From Prinia subflava (Eukaryota > Chordata > Aves > Passeriformes > Cisticolidae): DNA of 64,000 bases. The notes under the pieces were generated by a model that was not told the DNA's origin, did not search any database, and saw only the letters and a program-made list of their open reading frames with translations. The stretch is from NCBI RefSeq assembly GCF_021018805.1, contig NW_026961079.1, positions 1-64,000 on the forward strand. Reading direction: 5' to 3'. The position numbers were made by a program, and so were the translations under genes. Positions 5,440 to 51,864 of the stretch are shown one piece after another (position 1 is the first letter of the stretch; every line of letters starts with the position of its first letter).

Positions 5440-5458
<19 letters not shown>

Positions 5459-5990
5459 GGGGAAAAACAGGTATGGGAACCCCAAAAATCACCCAGGGGA
5501 CCCCAAAAATCACCCAGGGGACCCCAAAAATCACCCAGGGGACCCCAAAAATCACCCAGGGGGGTAAAAAACCAACCCAGGAGTGCCTGGGGGGCTTCTA
5601 CGGGGTCTGAGGGGAAAAACAGGTATGGGAACCCCAAAAATCACCCAGGGGACCCCAAAAATCACCCGGGGGACCCCAAAAATCACCCAGGGGACCCCAA
5701 AAATCACCCAGAGGACCCCAAAAATCACCCAGGGGGACCCAAAAATCACCCAGGGGACCCCAAAAATCACCCAGGGGGGTAAAAACTGCCCTGGGGGTAA
5801 AAAACTGCCCTGGGAGTGCCTGGGGCCTTCTACAGGGTCTGAGGGGGGAAACAGGTATGGGAACCCCAAAAAATCACCCAGGGGACCCCAAAAATCACCC
5901 AGGGGGGTAAAAAAACCAACCCGGGGGGGTAAAAACCAACCTGGGAGCGCCTGGGGGGCTTCTACGGGGTCTGAGGGGAAAAACAGGTAT
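5440..5990 (+). repeat. Tandem copies of the TNPO2 stop-codon region
   Basis: The end of the last coding exon (gccttctacggggtctga, ending at 5458) and the following ggggaaaaacaggtatggg recur near 5596, 5828 and 5960, each time preceded by gcctgggg. Between copies lie 21-22 bp units gaccccaaaaatcacccaggg. The spacings are about 150, 232 and 132 bp. The first stop is taken as real because it closes the family-typical AAFYGV terminus. Confidence 0.88.
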
Positions 5991-6600
5991 GGGGGGCTAA
6001 AAAACACCCTAAGGGGGGCAAAACCAACCCGGGGGAGCCCCAAAACCACCCTGGGGAGCCCCAAAACTGCCCCGGGGGGGTCCCAGAATTGCCCCGGGGG
6101 GGGCAGCAGGAATGGGGAGGCAAAAACTGCCCCGGGGGGGGCAAAAGAACCCCCGGGGGGCTCCAAAATCCCCTGGGGGCACCCAGGGCATCGCCCCAAA
6201 CCCGCCCCGGGGTGGGCCTGAGCATCGCCCCCTCCCCAAACCTGCCCCGGGGGGACCCAGGGCATCGCCCCCTCCCCAAAATCACCCCGGGGGGTCCCAA
6301 AACCGCCTGGGGGGTCCCAAAGCATCACCCCAAAACAGCCCGGGGGGGTCCCGAGCATCGCCCCCTCCCCAAAACTGCCGGGGGGGGGACAAAAAAAAAC
6401 CCCGGGGTGGGGGCAAAAACAGCCCCGGGGGGCTCCAAAATCTCCCTGGGGGGCCCAAAGCATCACCCCAAAACCCGCCTGGGGGGTCCGGGGGGCTCCA
6501 AAACCGCCCCGGGGGGCTCCAAAATCGCCCTTGGGGGGGTCCCAAAATCGCCCTGGGGGGGGTCCCCAGGTATCACCCCCCCCCCCCAACCGGCTCCGTT
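5991..6600. repeat. TNPO2-FBXW9 intergenic minisatellite
   Basis: Irregular 20-45 bp units combine ccccaaaactgccccggggggg with agcatcgccccctcccc. This is probably an extension of the array that starts in the TNPO2 3' region. No gene is seen. Confidence 0.75.
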
Positions 6601-49212: not shown

Positions 49213-49232
49213 GCGCCCCCCGGCCCCCCGCC

Positions 49233-51864
49233 ATGGCGCAGACGCTGCAGATGGAGATCCCCAACTTCGGCAACAGCATCCTGGAGTGCCTGAACGAGCA
49301 GCGCCTGCAGGGGCTCTTCTGCGACGTGTCCGTGGTGGTGAAGGGCCACGCCTTCAAGGCCCACCGGGCCGTGCTGGCCGCCAGCAGCTCCTACTTCCGA
49401 GACCTCTTCCACAGCTCCAAGAGCGCCGTGGTGGAGCTGCCGGCCGCCGTGCAGCCCCAGTCCTTCCAGCAGATCCTCAGCTTCTGCTACACCGGCCGCC
49501 TCAGCATGAACGTGGGCGACCAGTTCCTGCTCATGTACACGGCGGGCTTCCTGCAGATCCAGGAGATCATGGAGAAGGGCACCGAGTTCTTCCTCAAGGT
49601 CAGCTCGCCCAGCTGCGACTCGCAGGGCTGCACCGGCGACGACACGCCGGGCTCGGAGCCGCAGAGCCCGGTGGCGCAGACGTCGGCGGGGCGCGCCGGG
49701 CTGGGCGGCAGCGGCGGCGCTGCCCTTGGTGTCGCGGGTCAAGACGGAGCAGGGCGAGCCCGACGGCGTGCAGTGCACCTTCGTGGTCAAGCGCCTCTGG
49801 GACGGGGCCGCCAAGGGACGGCGGTGGGGCGGTGGCGGGCGGGGCAACGGCAGCAGAAAAATGGCCAAATTCTCCGAGGCGGCGCCGCGCCCGCCGCAGC
49901 CGCCCAACGCCGCCAACGCCGCCGGTGCCGCCGCCAACGCCGTCCCGGCGCCCGGCGCCGACCAGACCAGCCCCGGGCGGCACCTCCAGCGCCTACACCA
50001 GCGACAGCCCCGGCTCCTTCCACAACGAGGAGGACGAGGAGGAGGACGCGGGCGAGGAAGGCTCGGACGAGCAGTACCGGCAGATCTGTAACATGTACAC
50101 CATGTACAGCATGATGAACGTGGGGCCCCGCAGGTGAGGCCGCCCTGCCACGGGGGTGGCATTTGGGGACAGCATTTGGGGACACTCCGGGGGGTGCGGT
50201 CACGGGAGGCCCCGCCCCGTTTGAGGCTCTGCCCTCCCTGTGTCACCCCCCAGAGACCCTCCCAGTTTGGAGCTGGGACCGCCCTCACCAGCCCAGTGTC
50301 CCCCCAGACCCTTCCCGACCCCCGGGACCCCTCAGGGGCGGCTCCAAGGCTCCGGTGACCCCTGGAGGAGCCGCCCCTCCCCGCGGGTGGGGGGGACCGG
50401 GATCGGGCCCCCCGTGACCCCCGCGCCCCCTCAGCCGCAGAGAAGGTGGAGGCCCTGCCCGAGCAGCCCCCGCCGGAGCCGCGGGCCCGCGCCCGCCTGC
50501 GCCAGGACCTGGCGTCGCTGCCGGCCGAGCTCGTCACCCAGATCGGCAACCGCTGCCACCCCAAGCTCTACGACGAGGGCGACCCCGCCGAGAAGCTGGA
50601 GCTGGTCACCGGTACCGGGGCGGGCCGGGGGGCGGCGGGAGGCCCCCGCGGGGGTTTTGGGGGGTCCCCCGCTGACCCCCGGTGCGCCCCCTCCCCAGGC
50701 ACCAACGTGTACATCACGCGGGCGCAGCTGATGAACTGCCACGTCAGCGCGGGCACGCGGCACAAGGTGCTGCTGCGCCGCCTGCTCCGCCTCCTTCTTC
50801 GACCGGTGAGCGCCCCCGGGGGGTCCCCCCCAAGCCCACATTGGGGTCCGGGAGGGTTTTGGGGAGGGGTCCAGCCCCGGGTTTTTGTTGCCCTTGCAGG
50901 AACACGCTGGCCAACAGCTGCGGGACCGGGATCCGCTCGTCCACCAACGACCCCAGCAGGAAGCCGCTGGACAGCCGGGTGCTGCACGCCGTCAAGTGTG
51001 AGTGGGGGGCACGGGGGGGACCCCCTGGGAGGGCAGGGAGCAGTGGGGGGACCCCAGAGAGGGGACAGGAGCACCCTCAGGGAAGGGACAGTGGGGCACA
51101 GGAGGTGACACCACCAAACCTCCCAGCCCAAACCTCTCCCAGGGACCCTCCGGGGTGCCCTGGACCCCCCTGACCGTGTCCTTGTGGCCATCAAGTGTGA
51201 GTGGGGGGCACGGGGAGACCCCCGGGGATGGGGAACGGGGGGGCAGGGAGCAGCGGGGGACCCCAGAGAGGGGACAGGAGTGGCCTCAGGAGGGGACAGC
51301 GGGGCACAGAAGGTGACACCACCAAACCTCCCAGTCCAAACCTCTCCCAGGGACCCTCCGGGGTGCCCCGGACCCCCCTGACCGTGTCCTCGTGGCCGTC
51401 AAGTGTGAGTGGGGGGCATGGGGGGACCCCCGGGGGCTGGGGAACCCCAGAGAGGGGACGAGATGGGACAGGAGCACCCTCGGGGAGGGGACAGCGGGGC
51501 ACAGAAGGTGACACCACCAAACCCCCCCAGCCCAAACCTCTCCCTGAGACCCCAGCCAGGCTCGGGGCGCCCTGGACCCCCCCTGACCGTGTCCCCTCCC
51601 CAGTTTACTGCCAGAACTTCGCGCCCAACTTCAAGGAGAGCGAGATGAACGCCATCGCGGCCGACATGTGCACCAACGCGCGGCGCGTGGTGAGGAAGAG
51701 CTGGATCCCCAAGCTGAAGCTGCTCATGGCCGAGGGCGACTCCTACACCTCCTTCATCAACGACACCGGCAAGCTGGAGCCCGACATCAATGGGCCCCGA
51801 GCCCCCCTTCGAGGCGGGGGGCCCCGAGCCCGAGGGGGGGCCCGCAGGGGAGGGGCTGCAGTGA
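49233..51864 (+). CDS. NACC1: Nucleus accumbens-associated protein 1 (BTB/BEN)
   Basis: A BTB/POZ transcriptional regulator with a C-terminal BEN DNA-binding domain. Coding exons: 49233-50133, 50435-50611, 50699-50805, 50900-50997 and 51604-51864, about 512 residues once indels are allowed for. The BTB domain (residues 1-125) is intact and near-identical to human (MAQTLQMEIPNFGNSIL, LSFCYTGRLSMNVGDQF). The acidic stretch HNEEDEEEDAGEEGSDEQY and BEN segments (LPAELVTQIGNRCHPKLYDE, QNFAPNFKESEMNAIAADM) follow. Five apparent one-base insertions break the frame: about 49690-49722, 49978-49985, 50124-50131, 50791-50795 and 51793-51797. Correcting each restores family sequence and splice phase. The end would be EGLQ-stop. 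No frameshift falls in the BTB half. Confidence 0.92.
50998..51600 (+). repeat. About 200-bp tandem repeat carrying decoy copies of the NACC1 exon 5 donor
   Basis: Exon 5 ends gccgtcaagt|gtgagtgggg at 50997. The same junction recurs at 51196 and 51404, each followed by the same 200-bp spacer (gggacaggagcaccctcagg, acaccaccaaacctcccagc, gaccctccggggtgccc). Decoys extend only about 10 bases into exon sequence. Confidence 0.92.

What the first reader, a model, noticed from the sequence alone, without database searches (positions are those of the whole stretch)
5440..51600. Exon-edge minisatellites: splice junctions multiplied into decoy arrays
At least seven splice junctions in three genes, plus one stop-codon region, are present as tandem arrays in which each unit carries exon-edge bases and a complete donor or acceptor. 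The true junction is the first or last unit of its array. The recurrence across DHPS, MAN2B1 and NACC1 suggests one mechanism: a junction falls inside an expanding minisatellite and purifying selection keeps only the terminal copy. Exons would then have many competing splice sites, and exon edges could move by repeat turnover. I know of no standard name for this class. Arrays are seen directly; mechanism and consequence are inference.
Basis: partly seen in the sequence, partly recalled or inferred. Interest (0 to 1): 0.88.

Follow-up and report, generated by a model that had tools for sequence, protein, structure and literature searches.

The report
Exon stuttering in songbird introns
In a very GC-rich stretch of a songbird genome, edges of exons with their splice sites have been copied many times into the neighbouring introns; this matches the 'exon stuttering' described in chicken in 2026, and it raises the question of how cells pick the right splice site among look-alikes.

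Summary
In gene models of 75 introns (150 junctions), 8 junctions in TNPO2, DHPS, MAN2B1 and NACC1 have tandem copies of their own exon edge plus splice site in the adjacent intron: 84 copies, against none at the other 142 junctions or at 14 CACNA1A edges. The 'stop-codon' array in TNPO2 also ends in a donor motif, so it is probably a junction array too.

The class has had a name since February 2026: 'exon stuttering', part of 'sequence stuttering' on avian dot chromosomes (PMC12954441). The published screen, rerun here, flags 4 of these introns, all 19 hits in adjacent introns, none in ten shuffles. Nearest proteins are passerine, so this is a songbird case.

Added here: introns are bimodal (45 of 67-173 nt, 30 of 301-1786 nt). 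Other birds' protein models suggest introns 4 and 13 of MAN2B1 were once 72-81 nt. In introns that short, a random tandem duplication often includes an exon edge, so no junction-seeking mechanism is needed. Decoys score like real sites, yet 77 of 81 coding decoys would break the frame or add a stop. Decoy use is untested.

The parts
5427..6005 (+). TNPO2 last coding exon edge array: stop codon plus AACAG|GTATGG donor; true donor after 5470, decoys after 5622, 5854, 5986
   Evidence: 3'UTR intron 5471-6612 inferred from consensus splice sites only
13542..14457 (+). DHPS exon 2 donor array: true donor after 13578, 10 decoys after 13659 to 14444
26408..27561 (+). MAN2B1 exon 4 acceptor array: true acceptor at 27533|27534, 5 decoys at 26427, 26598, 26997, 27175, 27457
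27692..28573 (+). MAN2B1 exon 4 donor array: true donor after 27727, 5 decoys after 27837, 27998, 28218, 28356, 28548
28991..29530 (+). MAN2B1 exon 5 acceptor array: true acceptor at 29513|29514, 8 decoys 29015 to 29453
33525..34745 (+). MAN2B1 exon 14 acceptor array: true acceptor at 34726|34727, 21 decoys 33544 to 34664, each CAG|GTGGTC
38093..39471 (+). MAN2B1 exon 21 donor array: true donor after 38105, 31 decoys 38133 to 39448; 15 of them also acceptor-like
50988..51425 (+). NACC1 donor array (about 200-nt units, 10 exon nt): true donor after 50997, decoy after 51404, imperfect copy after 51196

Best explanation
These are exon-stuttering arrays, probably on a dot microchromosome of a songbird. 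Short GC-rich introns (about 70-100 nt) grew, often more than tenfold, by repeated local tandem duplication (replication slippage or unequal recombination; which one is not shown). Because the starting introns were so short, some duplicated units straddled a junction and carried exon-edge bases and the splice site with them. Only the exon-most copy codes for protein and is kept by purifying selection; the other copies drift or are refreshed by repeat turnover. Shown: the arrays, their restriction to the adjacent intron, intact coding copies, intact splice motifs in nearly all copies, two intron size classes. Inferred: short ancestral introns, the duplication mechanism, near-neutrality of the decoys, the dot-chromosome location.
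For: 84 decoys at 8 junctions, 0 at 142 others. Rerun of the published exon-stuttering screen: 19 hits, all in adjacent introns, in 4 of 75 introns, 0 in each of 10 shuffles. Long introns (30) are 89.7% tandem repeat, short introns (45) 28.5%, exons of the plus-strand genes 3.2%. Other birds' protein models that appear to read through the introns give 72 nt (Calonectris, Cochlearius) and 81 nt (Callaeas) for MAN2B1 intron 13, 75 nt for intron 4 (Cochlearius), and 81 nt with one extra exon-edge copy for intron 21 (Callaeas). Random-placement model 0.17-0.55 against 7 of 30 observed. Identity of copies falls with distance from the true junction in 6 of 6 arrays with 5 or more copies. The same anatomy is described in chicken with nanopore support (PMC12954441).
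Against: No reads, no second individual and no chromosome assignment were available. Only 1 of the 6 distance trends is significant on its own. Exon-breakpoint microhomology, expected for slippage at shared motifs, stands out in 2 of 8 arrays (combined p 0.066). The short-intron readings come from gene models of assemblies that may have collapsed repeats. The published screen misses 3 of the 7 array introns because the exon parts are too short.
Confidence: 0.85

Rival explanations
1. A junction-targeted process (for example co-transcriptional, at R-loops or G-rich donors) makes splice junctions preferred seeds of minisatellite growth.
For: Eight junctions in four genes; PMC12954441 reports that over 90% of copied exon sources lie within 1 base of the exon border (passage).
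Against: Random placement in short introns predicts as many or more. G-quadruplex motifs are not richer in array introns than in other long introns (medians 1.4 against 7.7 per kb on the sense strand). Both C-rich and G-rich arrays and both donors and acceptors occur.
Confidence: 0.07
2. The decoy arrays are selected: they tune splicing or send some transcripts to decay.
For: 84 of 84 decoys score at or above the 10th percentile of real sites, 34 of 84 at least as well as their true site. 79 of 80 copies found without requiring the motif keep GT or AG although the exon part differs at 6.4% of positions.
Against: Copies are not independent. Four degenerate units in MAN2B1 intron 21 have lost the donor. 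One search found only 3 of 8 copies in one array and could not score NACC1. In other birds introns 4 and 13 seem to work without arrays.
Confidence: 0.04
3. The arrays are assembly artefacts.
For: Several exons show frame breaks that look like indel errors; no reads were seen.
Against: Units differ in sequence and spacing; an independent bird model (Callaeas) seems to carry a two-unit form at the same junction; nanopore reads support such arrays in chicken (PMC12954441).
Confidence: 0.03
4. Chance similarity from GC-rich, low-complexity introns.
For: The window is 66-78% GC; NACC1 alone (10 exon nt, 5 of 200) is weak on exon bases.
Against: 0 of 142 other junctions, 0 of 200 control pieces for seven of eight arrays, 0 hits in 10 shuffles.
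Confidence: 0.01

Closest known systems
Exon stuttering / sequence stuttering on avian dot chromosomes (Hron et al. 2026, PMC12954441)
   Same: Lateral part of an exon with its donor or acceptor copied through the adjacent intron; coding exon intact; introns filled with imperfect tandem repeats; copy numbers and exon-part lengths in the published range for the larger arrays.
   Different: A songbird instead of chicken; exon parts down to 10 nt; length variation between individuals and chromosome location not tested here.
Internal tandem repeats at exon-intron boundaries of human segmental-duplication genes (PMC2812944, passages only)
   Same: Minisatellites at exon-intron boundaries that may alter splicing.
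   Different: There the repeats vary between recent paralogues and can form new introns; here the introns appear old and the copies lie within them.
Recursive splice sites (ratchet points; recalled, no paper seen)
   Same: 36 decoys in MAN2B1 introns 13 and 21 join an acceptor-like and a donor-like half at AG|GT.
   Different: They arise as tandem copies of an exon edge in introns of 1.4-1.6 kb; use unknown.

Membership tests
Exon stuttering (PMC12954441) | Introns highly repetitive | tested here: met
   Tandem repeats cover 89.7% of bases in the 30 introns of 300 nt or more
Exon stuttering (PMC12954441) | Partial copies of the exon in the adjacent intron only, passing the published screen (20 nt or more, 42.1 bits or more) | tested here: met
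   19 of 19 hits adjacent, 4 of 75 introns, 0 in 10 shuffles; 3 further array introns are below the threshold. My run: plus strand only, own gene models, no manual review step
Exon stuttering (PMC12954441) | Coding exon itself unchanged | tested here: met
   DHPS gap-free at the junction against a PDB deoxyhypusine synthase; MAN2B1 introns 3, 4, 13 no median length change; intron 21 differs by 7 residues from non-passerines
Exon stuttering (PMC12954441) | Intron length varies between individuals | not testable with these tools
   Single assembly, no reads
Exon stuttering (PMC12954441) | Strong preference for dot chromosomes | not tested
   Genome search did not complete; GC content and repeat density fit
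Intron gain by tandem duplication (Rogers model, cited in PMC2812944) | A new intron arises inside a former exon | tested here: not met
   For MAN2B1 introns 4, 13 and 21 other birds' models seem to hold the same intron as a short form; other array introns not tested
NAGNAG tandem acceptors | Competing sites 3 nt apart | tested here: not met
   Nearest decoy is 28 to 407 nt from the true site in the seven coding arrays
Recursive splice sites | Acceptor and donor juxtaposed at AG|GT | tested here: met
   21 of 21 decoys in intron 13 (weak donor half) and 15 of 31 in intron 21; 0 of 32 in the other six arrays
Recursive splice sites | Stepwise removal of the intron in vivo | not testable with these tools
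   No RNA data

The most novel reading that the evidence does not exclude
In MAN2B1 introns 13 and 21 the stuttered units are tandem recursive splice sites (acceptor and donor joined at AG|GT). Splicing into such a decoy regenerates a donor, so the intron can be removed in steps and the mRNA is unchanged. Exon stuttering would then be tolerated, and grow to 20-30 copies, where the unit happens to form a zero-length exon. The two largest of the eight arrays (21 and 31 decoys) are the two with this layout.
Probability: 0.06. Interest if true: 0.8.

Novelty: new member of a known kind. Interest (0 to 1): 0.45.

Why it matters
It adds a songbird locus to exon stuttering and gives base-level anatomy: where the copied exon parts start, how strong the copied splice sites are, and what would happen if they were used. 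Most coding decoys would ruin the message, so these introns are natural tests of how the spliceosome chooses among near-identical tandem sites. If exon edges sometimes shift with repeat turnover, as one MAN2B1 junction hints, this would be one route of protein change in GC-rich bird genes. Gene annotation in such regions can also pick the wrong junction.

Tried and rejected
Microhomology between exon breakpoint and intronic spacer: 2 of 8 arrays stand out (0.012 and 0.011), combined p 0.066, so not claimed. Purging of decoy splice motifs: not seen, but copies are not independent. G-quadruplex richness as a mark of array introns: not seen. Repeated exon-edge peptide in DHPS models: none in the 35 models inspected of 120 listed; the 35 include non-bird vertebrates. 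Exon edges moving in general: only intron 21 of 23 shows a median difference above 2 residues (13 non-passerine and 11 of 25 passerine rows were used from a 49-row alignment made). A first regular-expression listing of units missed copies and was replaced. My notebook gives 72-87 nt for intron 13; recounting one search gives 72-81 nt.

Literature searches: searches gave answers; 'sequence stuttering' or 'exon stuttering' occurs in one paper of that library. PMC12954441: I saw the abstract, passages, section 7 part 1 of 2, section 8 part 1 of 2 and the whole Discussion; not its supplements, so whether its 115 chicken genes include these four is unknown to me. PMC2812944: passages only.

Full report
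What the region is. The window is 66-78% GC. Exon reading gives TNPO2 (3' end), FBXW9, DHPS, WDR83 (minus), WDR83OS, MAN2B1, TRMT1 (minus), NACC1, IER2 and CACNA1A (minus). The names rest on recall of the encoded proteins, except DHPS and MAN2B1, which were matched. The models translate well except for frame breaks in FBXW9, MAN2B1 exon 6, WDR83, TRMT1 and NACC1, which look like assembly indels. The nearest MAN2B1 proteins are from songbirds (Chamaea fasciata 89%, Aphelocoma and Vidua 87% identity) and the nearest DHPS is from Coccothraustes (97%). That these are passerines is recalled. So the source is a songbird rather than chicken; the species is not settled.

The observation. I modelled 75 introns (150 junctions). 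For each I asked whether the intron holds copies of the exon edge joined to the same splice motif. Eight junctions do, with 84 copies; 142 do not. Fourteen CACNA1A edges, modelled separately, have none within 1500 nt. With exon bases alone, seven of the eight beat 200 of 200 control pieces; NACC1 (10 exon nt) is weaker, and four non-array edges also beat all controls with short matches.

What it is. [quoted passage not shown]). It reports 236 introns in 115 chicken genes, 190 of them on dot chromosomes, and strong length variation between individuals; it mentions repeat expansions in other birds. Its screen, rerun on my models (plus strand, no manual review), gives 19 hits, all adjacent to the source exon, in 4 of 75 introns (5.3%; the paper gives 3.4% of dot introns), and no hit in ten shuffles. 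The other three array introns carry exon parts too short for that screen.

How it probably arises. Introns fall in two classes, 45 of 67-173 nt and 30 of 301-1786 nt; tandem repeats fill 89.7% of the long class and 28.5% of the short class. Protein models of other birds that seem to read through introns suggest that the short class is ancestral: intron 13 of MAN2B1 is 72 nt in Calonectris and Cochlearius and 81 nt in Callaeas, and intron 4 is 75 nt in Cochlearius, without decoys, while here they are 1565 and 1786 nt. In Callaeas intron 21 is 81 nt with one extra copy of the exon edge (HLRQ followed by VS), the edge that has 31 decoys here; in Grantiella it is 87 nt without one. These readings depend on assemblies that may have collapsed repeats. 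A random-placement model of one tandem duplication in such short introns captures 10 or more exon nt in 17% (periods up to 40 nt) to 55% (all observed periods, 10-441 nt) of cases, against 7 of 30 expanded introns. No junction-seeking process is needed. Copies nearest the true junction are the most like it in 6 of 6 arrays with five or more copies, though only one trend is significant alone. Breakpoint microhomology was seen in 2 of 8 arrays only.

What it could do. By a position-weight score trained on the other junctions of the window (70 donors, 72 acceptors), each decoy lies at or above the 10th percentile of real sites, and 34 of 84 are at least as good as their own true site. This is not MaxEntScan. 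Searching for exon-edge copies without requiring GT or AG, 79 of 80 keep it (that search found 3 of 8 copies in one array and could not score NACC1), while four further units in MAN2B1 intron 21 have lost it. If used, 77 of 81 coding decoys would shift the frame or add a stop; four would give in-frame insertions, such as 27 residues in DHPS. Exact frames depend on an assembly with indel errors. In TNPO2 a decoy would move the last junction from 12 nt to 164, 396 or 528 nt past the stop, which by the usual rule (recalled) invites nonsense-mediated decay. So the decoys are either ignored, by position and exon definition, or cost the cell message; only RNA can say.

Exon edges. DHPS aligns without a gap at the array junction to a PDB deoxyhypusine synthase, and MAN2B1 introns 3, 4 and 13 show no median length change against 13 non-passerine sequences. 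Intron 21 does: passerines lack 7 residues there. It is the only one of 23 junctions with a median difference above 2, but 1 of 4 array introns against 0 of 19 others is not significant.

A bolder reading. In MAN2B1 introns 13 and 21 the units join an acceptor and a donor at AG|GT: 21 units in intron 13 with a weak donor half, and 15 in intron 21, 11 of them above the 25th percentile on both halves. Dinucleotide shuffles give 0.38 and 0.18 per intron. The other 73 introns hold two such sites; shuffles of all 75 introns give 4.6 in total. Such sites could be spliced stepwise without trace. The two largest arrays are the two with this layout. It is a lead from sequence only.

Verdict. It is a songbird instance of a recently named phenomenon. 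New here are the base-level anatomy, the short-intron explanation and a set of sharp splicing tests.

Noticed in passing
10008-10119; 19884-19990; 30090-30231; 41924-46747; 49213-51864: Frame breaks in otherwise conserved coding exons (FBXW9, WDR83, MAN2B1 exon 6, TRMT1, NACC1), probably assembly indels.
   Followed up: partly
13128-13180: A 12-bp tandem repeat lies within the coding start of DHPS exon 1 (GEAP repeated three times).
   Followed up: no
37890-38105: MAN2B1 exon 21/22 edge is 7 residues shorter in passerines than in most non-passerines compared.
   Followed up: partly
32638-32645: MAN2B1 intron 10 ends in an unusual CCCCAAG acceptor; TRMT1 intron 9 likewise ends in CCCAAG.
   Followed up: no
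59337-59602: CACNA1A exon (minus strand) with a run of 11 histidine codons.
   Followed up: no
60300-60690: Long tetranucleotide array (CCAT/CCGT type) in a CACNA1A intron, unlike the longer-unit repeats elsewhere in the window.
   Followed up: no
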